Shown here piece after piece: positions 18,702-37,622 of a stretch of 55,654 nucleotides of DNA (the stretch's first letter is position 1; each line of letters begins with the position of its first letter). This stretch comes from an uncultured bacterium (lineage in GTDB: Bacteria > Patescibacteriota > Patescibacteriia > UBA1558 > GWA2-36-10). The position numbers and the translations under genes were made by a program. The notes below the pieces were generated by a model, which was not told where the DNA came from, made no database searches, and was given only the letters and a program-made list of their open reading frames with translations. The stretch lies in assembly GCA_903855135.1 (NCBI GenBank), contig CAINYB010000014.1, positions 1 through 55,654 on the forward strand. The letters are read 5' to 3'.

Positions 18702-19364
18702 ATGAATAAAAAAGAAAAAGCGGTTATTTTAAGAAAGCGTGGCCAATCATTAGCAGAAATAGCTGAAATTTTAAAAATTTCCAAAAGTACAGCTTCTTTA
18801 TGGTTAAAAAGCATTGGCATTTCTAAAGCTGGTAGATTACGTTTACAAAATAGGATTACAAAAGCCAGGGTTAAGGGTGGCCAGGTAAACCACGTAAAGA
18901 AATTAGGCGATATAGAAAAAATTACTGAGTTTAGTCAAAAATTGATTAAGAATTTAAAATTTTCAAAAATTGACTATAAAATATTTTGCGCACTTCTGTA
19001 TTGGTGTGAAGGAAGTAAAGGCGGTAATTCTGTACGTTTTATTAATTCTGATCCATATTTGATTAAAACTTTTTTATTATTTTTACGTCTTGGGTTTCAG
19101 ATTAGTGAAGATAAATTTAGGGTTTGTTTACATCTGCATAAATATCACAAAATAGAGGAAGAGATCAAATATTGGTCTAATATTACAGCAATACATGGCA
19201 GTAAATTTTTAAAAATTCATCAAAAAGCAAATACAGGGAAAAGACTAAAGGATAATTATCATGGTTGTGCTTCTATTCGTTATTATGATGTGTCAGTTTT
19301 GAATGAGATAAAAATTTTGTATAAATTATTATTTATAAATAATGGGGGAGTAATTCAGTGGTAG
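18702..19364 (+). CDS. HTH protein with LAGLIDADG-like (homing-endonuclease-like) core
   Basis: A 220-residue protein. The N-terminus is a resolvase-type helix-turn-helix (KAVILRKRGQSLAEIAEILK, ISKSTASLWLKS). The remainder has the pattern ALLYWCEGSKGGNSVRFINS followed by a DP and a helix (LIKTFLLFLRLGF), which resembles the half-LAGLIDADG fold of small HTH proteins common in Patescibacteria and Actinobacteria. I cannot confirm nuclease activity. Its last 21 bases overlap the 5' end of tRNA-Trp, and it separates rpmG from tRNA-Trp. Both facts suggest an inserted, possibly selfish, gene. Confidence 0.6.
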   Translation: MNKKEKAVILRKRGQSLAEIAEILKISKSTASLWLKSIGISKAGRLRLQNRITKARVKGGQVNHVKKLGDIEKITEFSQKLIKNLKFSKIDYKIFCALLYWCEGSKGGNSVRFINSDPYLIKTFLLFLRLGFQISEDKFRVCLHLHKYHKIEEEIKYWSNITAIHGSKFLKIHQKANTGKRLKDNYHGCASIRYYDVSVLNEIKILYKLLFINNGGVIQW

Positions 19365-19417
19365 AATGTTGGTCTCCAAAACCAATCACGAGGGTTCGAT
19401 TCCTTCCTCCCCTGCCA
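19344..19417 (+). tRNA. tRNA-Trp (anticodon CCA)
   Basis: A complete cloverleaf: acceptor GGGGGAG with CTCCCCT (first pair G-U), D arm ATTC-AGTGGTA-GAAT, anticodon stem TTGGT/ACCAA with loop CTCCAAA (anticodon CCA), T arm GAGGG-TTCGATT-CCTTC, discriminator G as expected for bacterial tRNA-Trp, and an encoded CCA. The 5' end lies inside the preceding coding sequence, so any promoter of its own must lie within that gene. Confidence 0.96.
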
Positions 19418-19481
19418 GTAAGTTTTTTATCGAGTGACCGAGACGCTGTCTGGTAACGATAATTGCTTACAAAAGAAAAAA

Positions 19482-19501
19482 CGCCATTTTGGCGCTTTTT
19501 T
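19482..19501 (+). terminator. Terminator after tRNA-Trp
   Basis: A stem CGCCA (19482-19486) with TGGCG (19490-19494) and loop TTT, preceded by A6 and followed by C and six T. It ends the tRNA-Thr/rpmG/tRNA-Trp stretch 65 bases after the tRNA. Confidence 0.8.
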
Positions 19502-19628
19502 GTTTGCTTAAATTTTAAATCAAAGAAACAATTTTATCTTTTAAAATTAATTTACTTTGAATAGAGGAAAGTAATTCTCTTTTTTCTAGGATACTACCTT
19601 ACGCTTACCACGTCGCACGTGGAGCAAA

Positions 19629-19652
19629 AAAGCAGTCCTTAGCGGCTGCTTT
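19629..19652 (-). terminator. Terminator of the HD-domain gene
   Basis: Complementary arms AAAGCAG (19629-19635) and CTGCTTT (19646-19652) with a 10-base loop and T-tracts on both strands. The loop contains the stop codon of the minus-strand gene, so terminator and coding sequence overlap; it could also stop plus-strand transcripts. A separate small hairpin, CCACGT-CGC-ACGTGG, lies at 19609-19623. Confidence 0.7.
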
Positions 19653-20193
19653 CTTTTTTTATTTCTAATAATAATTTTTGATGACGTTCTTTTAATTTTA
19701 CGAAAAGGTTTTCATGTTTTAATTTCGGTTCAGCAATCTTAATAAAATATTCTAATTTTTGAATCAAGATTTTTTCCATCTCAGGATTATTACCGAAACG
19801 ATAGTAATTACTATTATCTAAGATATCAGCACATTTAATCATTAGAGCTTCTTTACCAGCATATTTGGTTCTCTTAAACATTTCCTGGTATTGTTTTTTC
19901 TTGTCTTTAATTTTTGTTTTAAAAGAAACCGCAGATACTAAATTACTGATTTTTTTCCCAAATTTTTTTTCAAGATCTTTAATCGTTATTTTTGAGTCTT
20001 CTAATAAATCATGTAATGTTGCTGCAGCAATTGTCGTGGCAGGTGATCCGTTTTCTGCTAGCGAACAAGCTACTTTTAGGCTGTGAAAAATTACTGGCTT
20101 TTCATTAAAGCCACTTTTTGAATATTCAGTCATTAAAAAAATCATAGCATTTTCAATGATTTGACTGTCTTTTTTTGAGTATGCTTTTCCCAT
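19639..20193 (-). CDS. HD-domain hydrolase, SpoT/MESH1-like
   Basis: A 184-residue single-domain HD protein. Motifs are FHSLKVA (first His), TLHDLLEDS (His-Asp pair plus the Glu-Asp seen in (p)ppGpp hydrolases) and KCADILDN (last Asp). The order and spacing fit the hydrolase domain of RelA/SpoT or the small alarmone hydrolase MESH1, but the synthetase and regulatory domains are absent. I start at ATG 20193: the longer frame from GTG 20223 overlaps a -10 box TACAAT (20215-20220, minus strand). Specificity for (p)ppGpp is inferred, not shown. Confidence 0.8.
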   Translation of the reverse strand: MGKAYSKKDSQIIENAMIFLMTEYSKSGFNEKPVIFHSLKVACSLAENGSPATTIAAATLHDLLEDSKITIKDLEKKFGKKISNLVSAVSFKTKIKDKKKQYQEMFKRTKYAGKEALMIKCADILDNSNYYRFGNNPEMEKILIQKLEYFIKIAEPKLKHENLFVKLKERHQKLLLEIKKESSR

Positions 20194-20214
20194 AATTTTG
20201 TCTAAACAATTTAT

Positions 20215-20243
20215 ATTGTACACATTTTTAAGATAATTATCAA
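20215..20243 (-). promoter_or_regulatory. Promoter of the HD-domain gene
   Basis: On the minus strand, TTGATA (complement of 20238-20243), 17 bases, TACAAT (complement of 20215-20220). The start is predicted near 20208, about 15 bases before ATG 20193. It lies back to back with the promoter of the CofE-like operon. Confidence 0.7.
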
Positions 20244-20257
20244 TTTTTGATTAAAAA

Positions 20258-20286
20258 TTGACTAAAATGTCAATTTATGTTTATAT
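20258..20286 (+). promoter_or_regulatory. Promoter of the GC-rich CofE/MAT/HprK operon
   Basis: A -35 box TTGACT (20258-20263), 17 bases, and TTATAT (20281-20286), within a run of alternating T and A that offers other -10 choices. The leader of about 70 bases contains a small CCTC-TTGATT-GAGG hairpin. The promoter is AT-rich like the host genome although the genes it drives are GC-rich. Confidence 0.55.
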
Positions 20287-20364
20287 ATATCGAAATATAC
20301 CTCTTGATTGAGGGGTGTATGAACCTTAAAAAAACGAATGAAAAAATACGAAAGGAACAAGGTC

Positions 20365-21108
20365 ATGAAAAAGATTGAACTGATCGGCCTAGAGAATATC
20401 CCCTTGGTAAACAAGGGTGACGATTTGGGTCGGTTAATCATCAAGTCCGCTGTTGAACAGGGGATTGATTTTCGTCAGGGAGACATCGTCGCTGTTGCTC
20501 AGAAAATCGTTTCGAAAGCAGAGGGGCGAACCGTTGATTTGGCGATGATCGAACCATCTGTTCAGGCTCGTGAGCTTGCTGGTCAAACTGGTCGTGACCC
20601 TCGGCTCTGCCAGGTCTATTTGAATGAGTCGAGTGCTGTTCTGCGGATCAAGGGGCGAATGATTATTACGCGTCACAAGTTGGGATTTGAATGTTCCAGC
20701 GCGGGCGTAGATCGTTCAAATGTCGCTCCTCACGCAGCGGGCATCGTTGTGTTGTTGCCTGAAGATCCTGACGAAAGCGCTCGTAAAATTCGCCAGGCCA
20801 TTCGTGATCGTTTTAGAGTCACTGTCTCTGTGGTGATCACAGATTCACTTGGTCGTCATGATCGAGAAGGATCAATTGGTTTGGCGATTGGCGTGGCGGG
20901 GATTAGCCCCATAGAGGTCAGGCATCAACAAGATCTTTATGGCAATGAGGCTAAAACTGGCATTGCCATCGTTGATGAAGCATCAGCAGCAGCTTCCTTG
21001 ATCATGGGTCAGGCGGATGAGAATCTGCCGGTGGTCGTGGTCAGGGGCGTTCGCTATACCGTGGACGATCAAGCGTCAATCCAACAACTTCTGATTTTGG
21101 GAGACTGA
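20365..21108 (+). CDS. CofE-like glutamate ligase (F420-0:gamma-L-glutamyl ligase family)
   Basis: The 247-residue product follows the CofE/FbiB pattern from end to end: VNKGDDLGRLI, GDIVAVAQKIVSKAEGR, LGFECSSAGVDRSNV, LLPEDPDESARKIRQ, VVITDSLGRHDREG, AIGVAGISPIEV, and AIVDEASAAASLIMGQ. Known members attach glutamate to the phosphate-bearing cofactor F420-0 using GTP. No other F420 gene is visible, so the acceptor is unknown. I start at ATG 20365, preceded by GAAAGGA, rather than ATG 20338. G+C is far above the neighbours. It is first of three tightly packed genes, with a TGA stop two bases before the next ATG. Confidence 0.88.
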   Translation: MKKIELIGLENIPLVNKGDDLGRLIIKSAVEQGIDFRQGDIVAVAQKIVSKAEGRTVDLAMIEPSVQARELAGQTGRDPRLCQVYLNESSAVLRIKGRMIITRHKLGFECSSAGVDRSNVAPHAAGIVVLLPEDPDESARKIRQAIRDRFRVTVSVVITDSLGRHDREGSIGLAIGVAGISPIEVRHQQDLYGNEAKTGIAIVDEASAAASLIMGQADENLPVVVVRGVRYTVDDQASIQQLLILGD

Positions 21109-21110
21109 TC

Positions 21111-22337
21111 ATGAATTTCTTGACTTTGAACAGAGGTTGCTTGGATCCTAATGAGCAACCATTCGAGATCGTCGAAAGGAAGGGTTTGGGTCATCCCGAT
21201 TCTTTGGCCGACGGTCTGGCTGACGCTATTTCAATTGCCTATTCCAAATACTGTTTGGATAGGTTTGGTGTGGTGCCGCATCACAACTTGGACAAGGTCT
21301 ACATCGGTGGTGGGCATTTTCTGCGAGACTACGGTTCTCGGACGATGCTCGCGCCGATTCAGCTCATCGTGAATGGTCGGATCAGTAATTCGATGGATGG
21401 ATCGGAAATTGATGTTCAGAGTATTCAGCGTGAAGCTGCCTCTGAATTTCTCGCGCCTTTGATGCCGCATTTGGATGTCGAACAGCACCTGGAGATACAT
21501 CCGAATGCAACGCAACATACGCAACGGGATTTCTGGTTTTCTCCTCGATCACGAGAAGACCTTCACGAGTTGTCTCGTCTCAAGGCAAACGACACGTCTC
21601 TGTGCGTTGCTTATGCGCCTTTGTCTGTTTGCGAACTTTTAACCATTGTCTTAGAGCAAGCCTTCTGGAATGTTCAAGAAGATGGGGGTAGGGTTCCTCG
21701 TTGGACTGACATCGGGCAAGATATCAAAGTGATGGTTCTGCGTAACGGCAGACAGATTGATGTCACGGTTTGTGCGCCTTTCATGAGCAACTCCATGAGT
21801 TTTTATGAGTATTACCTCCAACGTGTATCCGAGACTGAGTCCTTGTTGCAACAACTCGCAGAGAGTGTCGTTGGCAACAAGTATCAGGTCAAGGTGGAGG
21901 TGAATACTGCGGGCCGTCTTTACATGCTTGGTGTGGGTAGCTGCATTGAGTGTGGTGAAGAAGGCATCGTTGGACGAGGCAATTCCTCTGGAGGTTTCAT
22001 CGCCGCTGGCAGGCCTCATTCCATGGAAGCTGCTTTCGGGAAGAATCCGGTCTATCACACTGGGCGTGTTCTGGGATATCTGACGCAGAAGTTGGCTTGG
22101 GCCATCTATCGTCAGACTGGCGTTCCCAATGTCATTCACGCCTTGACGATCAACGGTGGAGGCTTGGTTCCTCCGGATAGATTGGTGATTAGTACGGCTC
22201 AGGAAGTTTCTCGTACAGCGATCGCTGATATTGTTGAGCGAGAATTTCTGAACACTGATTACCTTTCTGAGGTTTTGCGAATGCCGGCGGTATTCAGAGC
22301 TCTGAATTTCGTCGCTCAAGATCTGCAAAGGAGGTGA
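21111..22337 (+). CDS. Archaeal-type S-adenosylmethionine synthetase
   Basis: A 408-residue member of the archaeal methionine adenosyltransferase family, not of bacterial MetK. Motifs include ERKGLGHPDSLADGLADAIS, HHNLDKVYIGGG, a central PHLDVEQHLEIHPN and the Gly-rich GRGNSSGGFIAAGRPHSMEA followed by FGKNPVYHTGRVLGYL. Such enzymes make S-adenosylmethionine from methionine and ATP. Length matches the family (about 400). A bacterial metK with its own riboswitch lies at 36615, so this is a second enzyme. Codons are GC-rich (32 G+C in the 60 bases 21181-21240 by hand count). It ends in TGA, overlapping the ribosome-binding site of the next gene. Confidence 0.9.
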   Translation: MNFLTLNRGCLDPNEQPFEIVERKGLGHPDSLADGLADAISIAYSKYCLDRFGVVPHHNLDKVYIGGGHFLRDYGSRTMLAPIQLIVNGRISNSMDGSEIDVQSIQREAASEFLAPLMPHLDVEQHLEIHPNATQHTQRDFWFSPRSREDLHELSRLKANDTSLCVAYAPLSVCELLTIVLEQAFWNVQEDGGRVPRWTDIGQDIKVMVLRNGRQIDVTVCAPFMSNSMSFYEYYLQRVSETESLLQQLAESVVGNKYQVKVEVNTAGRLYMLGVGSCIECGEEGIVGRGNSSGGFIAAGRPHSMEAAFGKNPVYHTGRVLGYLTQKLAWAIYRQTGVPNVIHALTINGGGLVPPDRLVISTAQEVSRTAIADIVEREFLNTDYLSEVLRMPAVFRALNFVAQDLQRR

Positions 22338-22342
22338 TTACA

Positions 22343-23278
22343 TTGGATCAATACAAGTGTGCCGTTATCTCTGGAGGAGTTTCGGTAAACTTCGCCAGTG
22401 ACATGCCACTTCTTGAACTGTTTAACCAATCTGGTTACACTAGGCATTTCCCGGATTTTCATTGCGTCGATCAGCACCTGTCAACACCCTATCTGGTTCA
22501 TTACCGAAACAGAGAAGAGATGACAGTCGAATACAGCGGATCGACAGCAATTCTGAACTTCCCTTGGGAATTGATGAGAAAGGGCGAAACGATTCTGTAT
22601 GCAGCCTATCCCTTTGTCGAACGTCAGTTGCAAGGACTCGGCATCGTAACGGCTCATGCTGCTGCAGTTACGTTTGGTCAGGATGGAATCATGATCATCG
22701 GTAAGATTGGTGCTGGTAAGACTTCTACTGCCATGGAATTGTGCAGGAAGCGTGGCGCCAAGCTCATTGCCAATGATTTGTGTTTGGTCGGTGGTGAAGA
22801 TGAATGTCGAATTGTGGGAGGAACGAAAGACTTCCATGTCCGACTGGAATCTGCTCGACGTAACCTACCTGATCTGGTTCCTTTTTTCTCTGAACGTCCT
22901 GGCCTCGATTCCTGGTCGAACAAGGTTGTCTTTGACCCAGTCAAACTTGGCATTCAACTGCAAGACGAACCCGTGCCCTTACGCAAGGTGGTGCTTGTTC
23001 ACGTTGATCAAAGCCAGAAACGTTTAACGGTTCAACCGAAGAGCGATTTGGTTTTGCGACTATTGTTGAACGAGAACTTCTCGCGTTACATCAGGTCCAC
23101 AACCACAACCTTACTGGGTGGTGATTCCTATGATCTTCTGGGGTACATTCCTTCGATGGATTCCCCAGAGCTTTTCGAGAGACGTAGAAGGCTCATCAAC
23201 CATATCCTCGTTGATGTGGGAGTAGTCTATGTTTCCGGTAAGGTGGAGGAAGTGGTCGATGCGGTTGCTCGACTTTAG
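22343..23278 (+). CDS. HprK-like P-loop kinase
   Basis: The segment GIMIIGKIGAGKTSTAMELC, then KRGAKLIANDLCLV, follows the P-loop and Asp-containing loop of HPr kinase/phosphorylase (family pattern GDSGIGKSETALEL, then LVADD). The first 110 residues do not resemble the HprK N-terminal domain, so it belongs to the looser HprK-like kinase group, some of which modify small molecules or peptides. I start at TTG 22343: an almost ideal ribosome-binding site, AAAGGAGGTGAT (22327-22338), sits eight bases upstream. The GTG at 22334 lies inside that site. It ends with TAG and is followed by a terminator. Its substrate is unknown; no HPr is encoded nearby. Confidence 0.78.
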   Translation: MDQYKCAVISGGVSVNFASDMPLLELFNQSGYTRHFPDFHCVDQHLSTPYLVHYRNREEMTVEYSGSTAILNFPWELMRKGETILYAAYPFVERQLQGLGIVTAHAAAVTFGQDGIMIIGKIGAGKTSTAMELCRKRGAKLIANDLCLVGGEDECRIVGGTKDFHVRLESARRNLPDLVPFFSERPGLDSWSNKVVFDPVKLGIQLQDEPVPLRKVVLVHVDQSQKRLTVQPKSDLVLRLLLNENFSRYIRSTTTTLLGGDSYDLLGYIPSMDSPELFERRRRLINHILVDVGVVYVSGKVEEVVDAVARL

Positions 23279-23305
23279 CCAAGATTGGCTTCATTCGTTG
23301 AAAAG

Positions 23306-23323
23306 TGTCCACAAACGTGGACA
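23306..23323. repeat. Short hairpin before the operon terminator
   Basis: Arms TGTCCAC (23306-23312) and GTGGACA (23317-23323) with a four-base loop, between the HprK-like stop codon and the terminator at 23326. It may strengthen termination or protect the mRNA end. Confidence 0.6.
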
Positions 23324-23325
23324 AG

Positions 23326-23357
23326 GACCGCGGTTGACAAAACTGCGGTCTTTTTTT
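23326..23357 (+). terminator. Terminator of the CofE/MAT/HprK operon
   Basis: A 10-bp stem, GACCGCGGTT (23326-23335) with AACTGCGGTC (23341-23350), one G-U pair and loop GACAA, followed by seven T. It is a textbook intrinsic terminator, and its right half is also the spacer of the next promoter. Confidence 0.9.
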
Positions 23358-23362
23358 ATAAT
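23334..23362 (+). promoter_or_regulatory. Consensus promoter embedded in terminator
   Basis: TTGACA (23334-23339), exactly 17 bases, TATAAT (23357-23362): a perfect sigma-70-type promoter. The -35 box lies at the top of the terminator hairpin and the -10 box begins with the last T of the T-tract. It drives the AT-rich operon starting at 23422, with a leader of about 50 bases. Confidence 0.9.
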
Positions 23363-23421
23363 TATACAAATTCATCATATAACATATTTTGGTCTAAATT
23401 AATCAGAATATAAATAAATAT

Positions 23422-24561
23422 ATGAAAGTGTGCGTTGGAATACCTTCCTACAATGAAGCGGATAGAATATCTTTTGTGGTTTCACAAATTGATAAAGGTT
23501 TGAAGTTGTTGCGTGAAAATTTTCCACAAATTAATGATTGTGTAATTTTGAATGCAGATAGTTGCAGTAGTGATGATACTATAAAGAGATTTAATAACAC
23601 AGACACTTTATTTATAAAAGATTCAGTTTTAACTAAGGGTGAACCAGGCAAGGGCAAGAACGTCCTTGCTATTTTAAAATACGCTTTAGAAAATTCTTGT
23701 GATGTGGTTCTGACTATTGATGCGGACTTAGAAAGTATTACGCCAGATTGGATGTTAAAATTTACGGAATTAGTAATAAACAAAAAAGCAGATTTTGTTT
23801 ATCCGGAATATAAACGTAACAGGTTTGAAGGTAGCACAACGAATCATCTGGCATATCCTTTAATTTATGCTCATTTTGGTAAAGACATTAGACAGCCAAT
23901 TGGTGGAGATTTTGCCATGAGTTCAGAATATGCTCAATACATATTAGAACAGCAAGTGCCAATAGACGCTTATAAGTTTGGTATAGATATTTTTTTATCT
24001 ATGAATGCGGCTAGTGGAGAATTTGTTGTTCAGGCTGCTTAATTAGGTAAGAAAATACATAAACCAAGTTTTCCAAGAATGAGAGAAATGTTTCCACAAG
24101 TTGCATCTGCTGCGCTGGAGACTTTACTTCTACATAAGAGATCTTTAAAATTTGATGACGTTGATAAATCAGATATTAATATAACAGATAAATCAATTTT
24201 TTCGCATTCTAAAGAAGCAAAAATGATCTTAGAAGAAGAGTTAGGTAAATGCTCTAAAGATTTTTTAAGTTCACTCAAATGGTTGGATGAGCGAACTTTA
24301 CTTAATTTACAAGCTATTTTACCAAAGAATCATTTGAAGTTTGATTCTAGTCATTGGGTTAATGTTTTAGGAGATTGGGTTTCTTTTGCTTCGAACAATT
24401 CAATAATGGATATGCAAAACTATTCTCAGGAACTTTTACCATTTTTTGTAATTAGAGCTGTAAACTTTTGGAATGAAAGTAAAAATAAAACAGCTAATTG
24501 GGTCGAAAATGAAATTCGTATGCAGGCTTTAGATTTAAAAAAATATTTTGATCATAAATAA
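23422..24561 (+). pseudogene. GT81-like glycosyltransferase interrupted by in-frame TAA
   Basis: Residues 1-206 have the pattern of glucosyl-3-phosphoglycerate/mannosylglycerate synthases: GIPSYNEADRI, LNADSCSSDDT, KGKNVLAILKYA, LTIDADLESITPDW, YPEYKRNRFEGSTTNHLAYP and IRQPIGGDFAMSS. A TAA at 24040-24042 then stops translation, but the same frame continues (LGKKIHKPSFPRMREMFPQV) for 173 codons with the expected family continuation, so one base change splits an otherwise intact gene of about 379 codons. A C-to-T change from CAA is the simplest explanation. The product may be lost, made by readthrough, or the stop may be a sequencing error. Family members make glycosylglycerate solutes or polysaccharide primers. 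Confidence 0.8.
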
Positions 24562-24563
24562 TT

Positions 24564-25421
24564 ATGTATTTTTCAGTTTTATTAGGAAATCCAGTTGAAC
24601 ATAGTATTTCTCCAAAATTATTTTCTCTTTTAGCAGATGATTTGGGGATTGAGTATGCTCACATAAAAATGAATGTTCCATCTAAAAATAAATTACCAGT
24701 ATTTTTGAACAGCTTAAAAAACATTGGTTGTTATGGAATTAATATAACTTTACCTTATAAAATAGCCATTATGGGCCATGTTGATGCTATTGAGAAAGAA
24801 GCTAAGCAAATGGGGGCGGTGAATGCTATTTATTTTAAGAATGGGAAATTTATTGGTTTTAATGCAGATGCTCCCGCTGCTTTAATGGCGATTGAAAAGA
24901 AATTGAAAACAATCACAGCTAGAGATAAAGTTTTAATTTTAGGTGCCGGTGGGGCTGGTAGAGCAATTGCTTTTGAGATCAGAAAAAGAACTTCTCATAT
25001 TATTATTGTAGATAAAGAAATTAAGAAGGCAAAGGAATTGTCTGACAATTTAGAGAAATCAAATAATATCTTATATAAGAAATTTAATAATAAAGATATA
25101 ATTTCTTTAATTAAAGATTCTGATTACATCATTAACGCTAGTCCAGTGGGCATGACTCCGAACATTGATGGTATTCCTGTAGATTTTTCTTCTATAAAAT
25201 CTCTAAAGGGTAAGTATTTTTTTGATGCAATATTCAATCCTTATGAAACTAAATTTTTAAAATTAGCAAAGAAAAAAGGAGCAATGACCTGTTCTGGTAT
25301 GTACATGATGATTTTCCAAGCAGCTTATGTTTTAGAAAAATGGATCAATAGAAAAGTTAAAATTAATGACTTGGAAAAAATTAATAGTATTTTGATAGAT
25401 TATTTAAAAAATCATGCATAA
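24564..25421 (+). CDS. aroE: Shikimate dehydrogenase-like protein (AroE family)
   Basis: A 285-residue AroE-type NADP oxidoreductase. The substrate domain keeps LGNPVEHSISPKLF (Ser-x-Ser variant SIS), GINITLPYKIAIMGHVD with the catalytic Lys, and GAVNAIYFKNGKFIGFNADA. The nucleotide domain has VLILGAGGAGRAIAFEI, then NASPVGMTPN and the C-terminal GMYMMIFQAAYVLEKW. It should reduce 3-dehydroshikimate or a related ketone. No other aromatic-pathway gene is in the window, and the next gene encodes a sugar-type isomerase/oxidoreductase, so a role in a specialised pathway is possible. The sequence is very AT-rich. It starts two bases after the preceding frame and overlaps the next gene by 8. Confidence 0.87.
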   Translation: MYFSVLLGNPVEHSISPKLFSLLADDLGIEYAHIKMNVPSKNKLPVFLNSLKNIGCYGINITLPYKIAIMGHVDAIEKEAKQMGAVNAIYFKNGKFIGFNADAPAALMAIEKKLKTITARDKVLILGAGGAGRAIAFEIRKRTSHIIIVDKEIKKAKELSDNLEKSNNILYKKFNNKDIISLIKDSDYIINASPVGMTPNIDGIPVDFSSIKSLKGKYFFDAIFNPYETKFLKLAKKKGAMTCSGMYMMIFQAAYVLEKWINRKVKINDLEKINSILIDYLKNHA

Positions 25422-27228
25422 AATTTCAATTATTAATGATGAAATTTCTCAAGACATCAATGATGTTATCAAATTTTGTAAAAATAATAATCTTGATGTC
25501 ATAGAATTAAGATCAATTAATGGTAAAAATTTAATTGACCATGATTTTACTTTTCTAAAAAAAATTGCCAAAAAACTTTTAGCAAATAACATAGATGTGA
25601 TCAGTATAGCATCGCCAATTCTGAAATGGAAAAATGAGAAAAAGCATACCATTACTAAAGATGTTAGAATGCATAATTTTTCCGGAAAGAGTACTAACTA
25701 TGAAAAAGTTTTTGAGATTTCGAAAGTATTTAACGCCAAGTATATTAGGATTTTTTCTTATCTCAAATATGATAATTTCAAAATTGATGATTTAGATAAA
25801 GATTTTGAACAATTAATTAGCTTAGCTAAAGAGTATAAAGTAAAATTATTGTTGGAGAATGAGCCAGTTTGTAATATAGACACAATTGATAAATTAGAAA
25901 AAGTTATTAAACGTTTTAATAATCCATATCTAAAAATTTTATTAGACATTGGAAATTTATATGAAATGGACTTTTCAGTGTCTAAATTGGATATTAGTAA
26001 AATTGTTGATTCCATTGAATATCTTCATATCAAGGATTTTTCAACAAAAGAAAAAATTTATAAGATTTTAGGAGAAGGGGACATAAATTACAAAAAACAT
26101 ATCTCTGATTTATTGGAATTATCTTCTAAAAAGAATTTTGTATTTTCTTTGGAGACTCATACTAAGGAAAATAAATATAAGAACTCTGAACAATCGTACA
26201 TAAATTTAAAAAAAATAATCAAAACAAAGAAAAATATAAAATATGGAATTATTGGCTGTGGTAGAGTTTTTGCTAAACACGCTAAATCTATAAAATATAC
26301 GGAAAATGCTTTTTTAGACGGAGTTTATGATATTGATAAAGTAAAATCAAAAAGTGCTGCAAAGGAATTTGATTGTAGTTTTTTTTCAGATTTAAATGAA
26401 TTGATAACTAACGTAGATGTTGTTAATATTTGTACCCCTCACAATACCCATGTTGGTTTGATTACATCTGTTTTAAAGGCAAACAAAAAATGTCTTTGTG
26501 AAAAACCGGTAGTATTAAATGACAAAGAATACAAAACAATTATTAAGATAAAAAATAGCAAAAAGAATTTATTTGTTGTTTACCAGAATAGATTTAATCA
26601 AGCCATTCAAAAAATTGATGAGCTGATTAAGAAGAATGCATTAGGAAAACCTTTGTACATTTTTGGCAATGTCCGTTGGTTTAGACCAATAGATTATTAT
26701 AAAAATAATTGGCAAGGCACAATTAAAAAAGAGGGTGGAATTTTATTTAATCAGGGTATACATTTGATTGATATCTTAATGCGTTTTGGCAAAATAAGTA
26801 ATCACAAGAACATTAAGATAAAAGATGCTGTAAAGAGAAAAATTTATCATAAAAAAATAGAAACTGAAGATATGTTTGTTTCTCATTTCGAAGCAAATAA
26901 GATTCTTTTTAATTTGGAAGTTACCGTTTCTTCTATTCCTGAAAATTTAGAGAGTTCTATTTTTATTATTTTTGAAAAAGGTTCGATTTTAGTATCTGGT
27001 GATGCGTTGAATGAGCTGAAATTTGTGAAAACTCCATATTTTTCCACGGATTCATTTGTCGAAAATATTCGTGATGTTTATGGTAATGGTCATAGAAAAT
27101 TAGTAGAGTCTCTTACAAATTATTTATTAAATAATACTGTGGATGATAAATTAACTCATTTTGAAGAAGCTTATCAAAGAGTAGCCTTTATTAATAAATT
27201 ATATGAACATGAAAAAACCAATCGTTAA
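25414..27228 (+). CDS. Fusion of TIM-barrel sugar isomerase and Gfo/Idh/MocA oxidoreductase
   Basis: A 604-residue two-domain protein. Residues about 1-270 form a xylose-isomerase-like barrel (AP-endonuclease-2 family) with metal-ligand candidates in LLLENEPV, ILLDIGN, YLHIKDF and FSLETHT. From about 275 an NAD-dependent Gfo/Idh/MocA domain begins: KYGIIGCGRVFAKHA (Rossmann loop), VNICTPHNTHV, LCEKPVVLND (the EKP motif) and GGILFNQGIHLIDIL (His of the catalytic site). Such halves normally occur as separate enzymes of inositol, sugar or dehydroshikimate metabolism. Fusion implies that they act in sequence on one substrate. The gene is very AT-rich (11 G+C in 60 bases at 25501-25560) and overlaps its neighbours at both ends. 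Confidence 0.85.
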   Translation: MHKISIINDEISQDINDVIKFCKNNNLDVIELRSINGKNLIDHDFTFLKKIAKKLLANNIDVISIASPILKWKNEKKHTITKDVRMHNFSGKSTNYEKVFEISKVFNAKYIRIFSYLKYDNFKIDDLDKDFEQLISLAKEYKVKLLLENEPVCNIDTIDKLEKVIKRFNNPYLKILLDIGNLYEMDFSVSKLDISKIVDSIEYLHIKDFSTKEKIYKILGEGDINYKKHISDLLELSSKKNFVFSLETHTKENKYKNSEQSYINLKKIIKTKKNIKYGIIGCGRVFAKHAKSIKYTENAFLDGVYDIDKVKSKSAAKEFDCSFFSDLNELITNVDVVNICTPHNTHVGLITSVLKANKKCLCEKPVVLNDKEYKTIIKIKNSKKNLFVVYQNRFNQAIQKIDELIKKNALGKPLYIFGNVRWFRPIDYYKNNWQGTIKKEGGILFNQGIHLIDILMRFGKISNHKNIKIKDAVKRKIYHKKIETEDMFVSHFEANKILFNLEVTVSSIPENLESSIFIIFEKGSILVSGDALNELKFVKTPYFSTDSFVENIRDVYGNGHRKLVESLTNYLLNNTVDDKLTHFEEAYQRVAFINKLYEHEKTNR

Positions 27229-27877
27229 AGTTTTGATACCAGGGATACCTTTAAAAACTAAATTTGGCGGTTTAGGTTATTGTAGTATTGTTTTGATAAT
27301 TGATGGCGATAAAAGAATATTATTCGATACAGGGCACTATAGTGTAAGGAACAATATATTAAAATATATTAAGTTGTACAAAATCAATACTTTATTTTTA
27401 TCACATTTACATTTTGATCATTGTTTAAATGCTGATTTATTTTCAGAGTTTAATATAGACATATATGTGCATCAAAAAGAATTAGATCGTTTGAAATCAA
27501 AGAAAATCTCTGATGTGTATACTTTTTATTTTTTTAATCAAATTGTTAAAAATAAAAAAATTAAAATTTTCAAGAAATCTTTTTATCTATCACCAAATGT
27601 TTTAGCGATTGAGACTCCTGGCCATACTTCTGGGCATTCTTCTCTTGTTGTTAATAATTTAAATAAGTCATTTATTATAGCCGGAGACGCTTTAAAAACT
27701 TATAAAGATTTTACATCTAAAACAAAAAAGAATGATAAAACAGCAGAGGATCAAGTGCAAATGAGAAGGACTTTAGAATATATAAAAGACAATTTTGATA
27801 TTATTATTCCAGGACATGATGTTATGATAGAAAATGGCAAAAGAGTCAAGTCTAATGCTGATTTTTTTGAGTTTTAA
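27203..27877 (+). CDS. Metallo-beta-lactamase-fold hydrolase
   Basis: A 224-residue protein with the diagnostic metal motif SHLHFDHC (His-x-His-x-Asp-His), a third ligand in TPGHTSGHSSL, Asp in IIAGDALKT and a last His in IIPGHDVMI. The order fits a two-metal hydrolase of the glyoxalase II/lactonase type. It overlaps the preceding gene by 26 bases and is last in the AT-rich operon. Hydrolysis of a lactone or thioester made by the upstream enzymes is possible but inferred. ATG 27209 is an alternative start. Confidence 0.87.
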   Translation: MNMKKPIVKVLIPGIPLKTKFGGLGYCSIVLIIDGDKRILFDTGHYSVRNNILKYIKLYKINTLFLSHLHFDHCLNADLFSEFNIDIYVHQKELDRLKSKKISDVYTFYFFNQIVKNKKIKIFKKSFYLSPNVLAIETPGHTSGHSSLVVNNLNKSFIIAGDALKTYKDFTSKTKKNDKTAEDQVQMRRTLEYIKDNFDIIIPGHDVMIENGKRVKSNADFFEF

Positions 27878-36428: not shown

Positions 36429-36446
36429 GCATTTACAATTAAATAA

Positions 36447-36608
36447 ATTATCAAGAGTGCGGTGAGAGTTTTGGCTCTGCGACCCGCCAGCAACCATCTT
36501 TTTATAAAGAACGGTGCTAAATCCAACCCAAGCTTTTGGGGTAGATAATGAAGATCACATTAACTTTCCTTAAGATTTTGGGGAAAGATTTTTTAATTAT
36601 TAAGGAAA
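36447..36608 (+). promoter_or_regulatory. SAM-I type riboswitch with expression platform
   Basis: The aptamer follows the S-box plan: P1 ATTATC (36447-36452) with GATAAT (36544-36549), ATCAAGAG, a GAGAG/CTCTG hairpin region, CCGCCAGCAACC, then ACGGTGCTAAATCCAACCC. Downstream, CTTTCC (36564-36569) can pair with GGAAAG (36582-36587), followed by ATTTTTT, as a terminator. TTTCCTTAA (36565-36573) is also a perfect 9-base complement of TTAAGGAAA (36600-36608), which carries the metK ribosome-binding site. It should reduce metK expression when S-adenosylmethionine is abundant. Confidence 0.9.
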
Positions 36609-36614
36609 AATTTT

Positions 36615-37622
36615 ATGCTCAAAACAGCAGAAAATGTATCTTGGGGACACCCAGATAAAGTGTGTGATCAAATTTCTGACGCTATTTTAGATGAGTGTCT
36701 CAAGCAAGATCCAAATAGTCGTGTAGCTGTCGAAACTATGGGTGGCCATGGTAAGCTTTTTATTTTAGGCGAAGTGACAACTTACGCCGACTTTGATCCA
36801 GAAAAAATCGCAAGAGAAGTTTATCGAGAAATTGGCTATGAAGACGAGTTAGAGATCAAAGCTTATTTAGTGAAGCAAAGTTCAGACATTGCTCAAGGTG
36901 TTGATCTCGGTGGTGCCGGTGACCAAGGCATCATGGTCGGCTATGCAACTAATGAGACAACAGAGCTTTTGCCTTTAGAACATGTTTTAGCTACTAAACT
37001 CATTCGTCATTTAGAGGAGCTGAGAGCAGACAAAAATAATCAACTGGCGCAATTTTTATTACCAGACGCTAAAGCGCAAGTGACGCTTGATGGAGAGAAA
37101 ATAAAAACTGTAGTTTTATCTACTCAACATCGTGATAATATCAGCACAGAAGTTTTGCGTGATTTAGTGATCAAAGAAGTGATTAAGCCGATTATTCCAG
37201 CTTATGAGCAAGTGTTTATCAATCCAACTGGCATTTTTTTACAAGGTGGCTTTAGTGCGGATACTGGTTTGACTGGTCGTAAAATCACTGCTGATAATTA
37301 TGGTCCACAAATCCCAGTCGGTGGGGGAGCTTTTTCTGGCAAAGATGCAAGCAAAGTCGATCGCTCGGCCGCCTATATGGCGAGGTTTTTAGCCGTTGAA
37401 TATTTAAAGAAATATCAAGCCAAAGAAGTGCTAGTAAAACTCGCTTATGCTATCGGCAAAAAGGAGCCAGTAATGTCTACAGCCATGGTAGATAACAAGC
37501 TGATAGAAATCACAGGGTATGATTTATCTCCGCAAGGCATTGTTGATTTTTTACATTTGAAAGAGCCACAATTTAAAAATCGTGCTCGTTTTGGTTTTTT
37601 TCAAGATTTTTTAATAACTTAA
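36615..37622 (+). CDS. metK: S-adenosylmethionine synthetase, bacterial type
   Basis: A 335-residue bacterial MetK making S-adenosylmethionine from methionine and ATP. Motifs are SWGHPDKVCDQISDAILDE, GAGDQGIMVGYA (the ATP-binding hexapeptide region) and GGGAFSGKDASKVDRSAAY (the phosphate-binding loop). It is about 50 residues shorter than E. coli MetK but covers all three domains. A ribosome-binding site AAGGA sits nine bases upstream and is part of the riboswitch platform. A second, archaeal-type enzyme is encoded at 21111, without a riboswitch. Confidence 0.96.
   Translation: MLKTAENVSWGHPDKVCDQISDAILDECLKQDPNSRVAVETMGGHGKLFILGEVTTYADFDPEKIAREVYREIGYEDELEIKAYLVKQSSDIAQGVDLGGAGDQGIMVGYATNETTELLPLEHVLATKLIRHLEELRADKNNQLAQFLLPDAKAQVTLDGEKIKTVVLSTQHRDNISTEVLRDLVIKEVIKPIIPAYEQVFINPTGIFLQGGFSADTGLTGRKITADNYGPQIPVGGGAFSGKDASKVDRSAAYMARFLAVEYLKKYQAKEVLVKLAYAIGKKEPVMSTAMVDNKLIEITGYDLSPQGIVDFLHLKEPQFKNRARFGFFQDFLIT

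What the first reader, a model, noticed from the sequence alone, without database searches (positions are those of the whole stretch)
21111..22337. Archaeal-type SAM synthetase in a cell that already has riboswitch-controlled MetK
Motifs place 21111-22337 in the archaeal methionine adenosyltransferase family, while 36615-37622 is a bacterial MetK. A tiny genome keeping both suggests a dedicated supply of S-adenosylmethionine (or of an analogue) to the operon's pathway, escaping control by the metK riboswitch. No SAM riboswitch is visible upstream of 20365.
Basis: partly seen in the sequence, partly recalled or inferred. Interest (0 to 1): 0.75.

Follow-up and report, generated by a model that had tools for sequence, protein, structure and literature searches.

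The report
Altered SAM-synthetase relative in biosynthetic cassette
A tiny bacterium carries, besides its ordinary S-adenosylmethionine-making enzyme, an archaeal-type relative that belongs to a separate branch with one altered substrate contact and that travels with the same set of sugar-acid enzymes through very different bacteria, so it probably serves an undescribed metabolic pathway, perhaps attaching adenosine to something other than methionine.

Summary
In detail: 21111-22337 encodes an intact archaeal-type methionine adenosyltransferase (MAT), 36615-37622 a bacterial MetK behind an S-box riboswitch, and no riboswitch precedes the operon. Keeping both proves little, because 41% of sampled genomes of this phylum have MetK. 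What matters is the company the gene keeps. It lies in a cassette (HD_4, CofE-like, MAT, HprK-like, GPGS-like glycosyltransferase, AroE, TIM barrel-Gfo/Idh, MBL) that recurs, in many gene orders, in other Patescibacteria, on Streptomyces plasmids, in Salinispora, gut Bacilli, a cyanobacterium and an alphaproteobacterium. Its MATs form one clade (support 100/99). All 62 members have Glu where all 19 other MATs examined have Asp; in solved archaeal MATs that Asp binds the ribose and the methionine amino group. Adenosyl-side residues and most methionine-carboxylate ligands remain. No recognisable SAM-using enzyme belongs to the recurrent gene set. Best reading: a pathway-dedicated, diverged adenosyltransferase acting on a carboxylate-bearing acceptor other than methionine (about 0.42); a dedicated SAM supply is nearly as likely. 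The genome lacks CofD and chorismate synthase, so CofE and AroE are repurposed. The glycosyltransferase has an in-frame stop here, so this copy may be decaying. I found no published description of the cassette.

The parts
19639..20223 (-). HD_4 (RelA/SpoT-like HD hydrolase) protein, recurrent member of the cassette
   Evidence: PF13328, spoT_relA subfamily hit; homologues in 9 of 56 clade loci
20338..21108 (+). CofE-like (F420-0:glutamate ligase family) amide ligase
   Evidence: PF01996 and TIGR01916 above cut-off; only copy in the genome and no CofD found, so not F420 synthesis
21111..22337 (+). archaeal-type methionine adenosyltransferase of the Glu283 clade
21957..21959 (+). codon GAA for Glu283, where solved archaeal MATs have Asp contacting ribose and the methionine amine
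   Evidence: sequence; alignment with PDB chains; role of the Asp from PMC3853416
22334..23278 (+). HprK/PEPCK-fold P-loop kinase-like protein; the real start may be TTG 22343, after AGGAGGTGAT
   Evidence: AlphaFold and Foldseek
23323..23353 (+). intrinsic terminator after the HprK-like gene
23334..23362 (+). sigma-70-like promoter with a 12/12 consensus match, ahead of the second half of the cassette
   Evidence: pattern match only
23422..24561 (+). GPGS-like GT2 glycosyltransferase, interrupted by an in-frame TAA at 24040-24042
24564..25421 (+). AroE (shikimate dehydrogenase family)
   Evidence: TIGR00507 above cut-off; best solved match 1nvt; no chorismate synthase found in the genome
25414..27228 (+). 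fusion of a TIM-barrel epimerase/isomerase-like domain and a Gfo/Idh/MocA oxidoreductase
   Evidence: separate adjacent genes in Streptomyces
27203..27877 (+). metallo-beta-lactamase-fold hydrolase
   Evidence: homologues in 4 clade loci
36445..36551 (+). SAM (S-box) riboswitch
   Evidence: RF00162, 69.5 bits
36615..37622 (+). ordinary bacterial MetK
   Evidence: TIGR01034 above cut-off

Best explanation
The protein is not a second housekeeping SAM synthetase. It is the adenosyl-handling enzyme of a mobile biosynthetic cassette built around HprK-like, GPGS-like, CofE-like, AroE, TIM-barrel and Gfo/Idh proteins (shown: family membership, clade, cassette; about 0.9). Most likely it keeps the MAT chemistry (ATP binding, attack at C5', loss of triphosphate) but has been re-tooled at the amine contact (Asp to Glu283) to take a carboxylate-bearing acceptor other than methionine. 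The acceptor would be a hydroxy-acid or sugar-acid scaffold that the other enzymes make, glycosylate (GPGS-like), phosphorylate (HprK-like) and amidate (CofE-like), giving a 5'-adenosyl-linked nucleotide-like metabolite (inferred; about 0.42).
For: The cassette MATs form one clade against 19 others, 4 of them solved archaeal enzymes (100/99). Glu283 is fixed in the clade and Asp in the rest (62 to 19); it is the only fully fixed difference and lies at the residue that binds ribose and the methionine amine (PMC3853416). His28, Tyr271, Asp204 and mostly His57/Asn59 are kept, so adenosine binding and carboxylate recognition persist. Gut Bacilli also lose Asn160 (to Ala/Gly), the position of the engineered N159G variant of S. 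solfataricus MAT. HprK-like, GPGS-like and CofE-like neighbours occur at 51/62, 48/62 and 36/62 of the clade's loci and at 3/15, 0/15 and 0/15 of the Asp-type loci. The gene sets recur in many orders across phyla; the nine gene functions of the window recur in L111. No SAM-using family is in the recurrent set. The families GPGS, CofE and AroE act on hydroxy- or polyol-carboxylates; a lactate-racemase-family protein (L120) and a DHQ-synthase-like protein (L114) also occur beside it.
Against: Asp to Glu is conservative; the residue also serves the ribose, and the methionine-carboxylate ligands are kept, so methionine may still be the substrate. Some clade loci have a SAM-using gene nearby: a methyltransferase in L021 and L024, a radical SAM protein in L114. 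About 11 of 16 Patescibacteria-size genomes with the clade lack a detectable MetK. The product is unknown. The GPGS-like gene has an in-frame stop in the window.
Confidence: 0.42

Rival explanations
1. Dedicated SAM (or SAM-analogue) supply: the enzyme makes SAM for the cassette pathway, out of reach of the metK riboswitch; Glu283 only tunes kinetics or analogue choice.
For: Clear MAT family, catalytic residues kept; no riboswitch upstream; a few clade loci contain methyltransferase or radical SAM genes; SAM could itself be the scaffold for the CofE-like or GT enzymes.
Against: No SAM user in the recurrent gene set; fixed change exactly at the methionine-amine contact; cytosolic SAM is not compartmentalised, so private supply is hard in a tiny cell.
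Confidence: 0.38
2. Housekeeping or back-up MAT acquired from archaea, linked to the cassette by chance.
For: Many Patescibacteria lack MetK; about 11 of 16 with this clade have none.
Against: The cassette is retained across phyla in many orders; large actinobacterial hosts all have MetK; the MetK rate is close to the phylum base rate.
Confidence: 0.06
3. In this particular genome the cassette is decaying and the MAT is a relic, whatever its function elsewhere.
For: In-frame TAA 24040-24042 in the GPGS-like gene; compositional mosaic.
Against: MAT, CofE, HprK, AroE, TIM-Gfo and MBL reading frames are all intact; one stop in a metagenome-type assembly may be an error.
Confidence: 0.14

Closest known systems
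Archaeal methionine adenosyltransferase (PF01941; solved: M. jannaschii 7p82, P. furiosus 6s81, T. kodakarensis 4l4q, S. solfataricus 4hpv)
   Same: Fold, catalytic His, adenine-stacking Tyr, ribose Asp, His/Asn carboxylate ligands
   Different: Glu for the Asp at the methionine-amine/ribose contact; longer flexible loop with a WFxPR..DLP motif; separate clade; sits in a biosynthetic cassette
Other bacterial archaeal-type MATs (Streptomyces L018/L036, Megaera L019, Parageobacillus L039)
   Same: Same family, the longer loop in several of them, also beside sugar or cyclitol enzymes
   Different: Asp is kept; no GPGS-like or CofE-like neighbours
F420 biosynthesis CofE
   Same: The 20338-21108 protein passes TIGR01916
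   Different: No second CofE and no CofD found in this genome; gene neighbourhood is not F420
Thuringiensin (thu) pathway of Bacillus thuringiensis (PMC4147579, PMC6628457)
   Same: Its product joins adenosine at 5', glucose, a hexaric acid and phosphate, the kind of product a GT, kinase, sugar oxidoreductase and adenosyltransferase set could make
   Different: The thu gene list in PMC4147579 names no MAT, CofE-like or HprK-like gene; analogy only, sequences not compared here

Membership tests
Methionine adenosyltransferase, archaeal type | PF01941 above the gathering score | tested here: met
   254.5 bits against 27
Methionine adenosyltransferase, archaeal type | NCBIfam equivalog score for methionine adenosyltransferase (PRK04439 models) | tested here: not met
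   360.8 against 481 for the best model
Methionine adenosyltransferase, archaeal type | Catalytic His, stacking Tyr, ribose Asp201 (Tk) | tested here: met
   His28, Tyr271, Asp204 (roles PMC3853416)
Methionine adenosyltransferase, archaeal type | Methionine carboxylate ligands His62, Asn64, Asn161 (Tk) | tested here: met
   His57, Asn59, Asn160 in the window; Asn160 lost in gut Bacilli members
Methionine adenosyltransferase, archaeal type | Asp283 (Tk) binding ribose and the methionine amine | tested here: not met
   Glu in the window and in all 62 clade members; Asp in all 19 others
Methionine adenosyltransferase, archaeal type | Makes SAM from ATP and methionine | not testable with these tools
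   needs an enzyme assay
F420-0:glutamate ligase CofE | TIGR01916 above cut-off | tested here: met
   241.7 against 180.65
F420-0:glutamate ligase CofE | F420 pathway present (CofD) | tested here: not met
   no CofD match in the 96.6% complete genome
Shikimate dehydrogenase AroE | TIGR00507 above cut-off | tested here: met
   208.2 against 200.2; aligned to 1nvt
Shikimate dehydrogenase AroE | Serves chorismate synthesis | tested here: not met
   no chorismate synthase in the genome; the control found it in 14 of 14
HPr kinase/phosphorylase | PF07475 above the gathering score | tested here: not met
   29 against 33.3
HPr kinase/phosphorylase | PEPCK/HprK fold with Walker A | tested here: met
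   Foldseek PEPCK E=3e-10 and HprK E=1e-6; GxxGxGKT invariant
Thuringiensin pathway | Homology to thu genes | not tested
   only the published gene list was read

The most novel reading that the evidence does not exclude
The Glu283 clade is a class of adenosyltransferases that use ATP to put a 5'-deoxyadenosyl group on an acceptor other than methionine, for example a sugar-acid or hydroxy-acid, making an undescribed family of adenosyl-linked metabolites shared by Patescibacteria, actinobacteria and gut Bacilli.
Probability: 0.4. Interest if true: 0.88.

Novelty: new variant of a known kind. Interest (0 to 1): 0.72.

Why it matters
A widespread cassette that I could not find described, with one diagnostic residue that allows genome mining, suggests a hidden metabolite class made even by cells with 0.8-Mb genomes. 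If the MAT-like enzyme adenosylates something other than methionine, it would add a new reaction to one of the oldest enzyme families. Streptomyces and Salinispora strains that carry the cassette make the question testable at the bench.

Tried and rejected
Close-relative scan of genome contigs with the MAT alone found nothing, and the HprK alignment was too diverse to scan with. A degenerate DNA pattern for the Glu motif worked instead. Phage records have no homologue. In viral contigs the single pattern match (L097) showed none of the cassette families. Plasmid tblastn with the HprK-like protein found nothing. The idea that the E-type MAT replaces MetK was tested by the MetK base rate and not supported. 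F420 biosynthesis for CofE and aromatic synthesis for AroE were rejected because partner genes are missing. Literature searches found no description of the cassette; the library is open access only.

Full report
OBSERVATION. The 408-aa ORF at 21111-22337 is intact and belongs to PF01941 (254 bits, cut-off 27); the best NCBIfam models are archaeal-type methionine adenosyltransferases, though below their equivalog scores. AlphaFold plus Foldseek puts it on solved archaeal MATs (E=2e-38, TM 0.8-0.9). MetK at 36615-37622 passes TIGR01034 and has an S-box riboswitch at 36445-36551. Nothing riboswitch-like lies upstream of 20338. The archaeal-type gene is single-copy in the genome and rare around it: above cut-off in 2 of 91 relatives including itself, and in 11 of 380 genomes of the phylum.

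WHAT 'BOTH' MEANS. In 362 sampled genomes of the phylum 148 (41%) have a MetK match, 109 above cut-off. Among Patescibacteria-size genomes that carry this MAT clade I count about 5 of 16 with MetK, including the window (duplicates between collections merged by eye, one genome without a clear phylum). So having both is what chance would give. The large actinobacterial hosts all have MetK.

THE CASSETTE. Neighbours in the window are HD_4 (minus strand), CofE-like, MAT, HprK-like, GPGS-like GT2, AroE, a TIM-barrel/Gfo-Idh fusion and an MBL protein. Streptomyces plasmids carry TIM, Gfo, MAT, HprK-like, GPGS-like, CofE and AroE as one run of genes (NBC_01304; NBC_01601, which has one extra oxidoreductase gene; homology of the two 'hypothetical' genes). 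A haloarchaeal plasmid has TIM, Gfo, aroE, MAT and a GPGS-like gene. An uncultured alphaproteobacterium (L111) has homologues of all nine gene functions. Gene orders differ widely, which argues for selection on the set.

ONE CLADE, ONE RESIDUE. In T. kodakarensis MAT, Asp283 binds the ribose and the methionine amino group (PMC3853416; P. furiosus Asp280, PMC8727953). Four archaeal MATs taken from the PDB have Asp there; the window has Glu283 (codon 21957-21959). I scanned genome contigs for the DNA of G-E-(E/D)-G-(I/V/L/M)-V-G-R-G-N without using context: 56 stretches, all holding a MAT match. HprK-like is present in 45, GPGS-like in 42, CofE-like in 31, though these loci are mostly 8-kb or shorter cuts. 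With the other loci, 62 Glu-type and 15 non-PDB Asp-type MATs were compared: HprK 51/62 against 3/15, GPGS 48/62 against 0/15, CofE 36/62 against 0/15. The Fisher p-values there overstate the evidence, since the Glu type is one clade and so not independent; the Asp-type loci often had longer flanks, which works against the result. The tree puts all Glu-type rows on one side of a branch (100/99, 100% of bootstraps); its root is unknown. Glu283 is the only fixed difference between the groups. Adenosine-side residues are kept; the methionine-carboxylate ligands are kept in the window, but Asn160 is Ala or Gly in gut Bacilli and Ser in a few actinobacteria. 4ws9 (S. solfataricus N159G) has Gly at this very column. 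I recall that this variant was made to widen substrate range, but did not check the paper.

FUNCTION OF PARTNERS. CofE is the only copy in the genome and no CofD was found, so F420 is not made. AroE passes its model and aligns with the M. jannaschii enzyme through the substrate-binding motifs, but there is no chorismate synthase. The HprK-like protein misses the Pfam score yet folds like PEPCK/HprK with an invariant P-loop. By family knowledge GPGS acts on 3-phosphoglycerate, CofE on a phospholactate-type carboxylate and AroE on a cyclic polyol carboxylate; a lactate-racemase-family protein (L120) and a DHQ-synthase-like protein (L114) turn up beside other clade members. Together these suggest a hydroxy-acid or sugar-acid scaffold. 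That is inference.

MECHANISM. Shown: family, clade, residue change, cassette. Inferred: dedicated role (about 0.9), acceptor other than methionine (about 0.42). A dedicated SAM supply remains nearly as likely (0.38), because Asp to Glu is mild and carboxylate binding is kept. No SAM-using enzyme is in the recurrent set, though L021 and L024 have a methyltransferase nearby and L114 a radical SAM protein. The thuringiensin molecule (adenosine at 5', glucose, hexaric acid, phosphate; PMC4147579, PMC6628457) shows that such products exist, but its published gene list has no MAT, so this is an analogy only.

THIS COPY. The GPGS-like gene has an in-frame TAA at 24040-24042, at a column where homologues vary. 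GC at third positions is 0.48-0.51 in CofE/MAT/HprK, 0.20-0.23 in the other cassette genes and about 0.26-0.32 in host genes, so the cassette seems assembled from two sources. A terminator and a 12/12 promoter match separate the halves. In several relatives tRNA-Trp lies beside dnaJ, and MAT is missing there, so the cassette looks inserted at that locus.

LIMITS. Asp-type controls are few and not randomly drawn; most loci are cut at 8 kb; genome records are often metagenome bins; the paper library lacks subscription journals.

Noticed in passing
24040-24042: In-frame TAA splits the GPGS-like glycosyltransferase gene (23422-24561); the frame is otherwise open.
   Followed up: partly
20338-27877: GC3 mosaic: CofE/MAT/HprK about 0.5, the rest of the cassette about 0.2, host about 0.3.
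   Followed up: partly
18702-19364: HTH-domain protein between tRNA-Thr and tRNA-Trp whose 3' end overlaps the start of tRNA-Trp (19344); possibly part of a mobile element.
   Followed up: no
19344-20338: The cassette follows tRNA-Trp; in several relatives tRNA-Trp is next to dnaJ without the cassette.
   Followed up: partly
L114:3070-10988: Micromonospora variant: MAT, DHQ-synthase-like protein, CofE, unknown protein, radical SAM (B12-type), HprK, GPGS.
   Followed up: partly
L025, L026: Asp-type MAT with HprK-like, HAD and GT4 genes: a second, related cassette type in Patescibacteria.
   Followed up: no
L109, L121: Gut Bacilli and a Rickettsiales bin carry a compact GPGS-MAT-HprK-NUDIX version.
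   Followed up: partly
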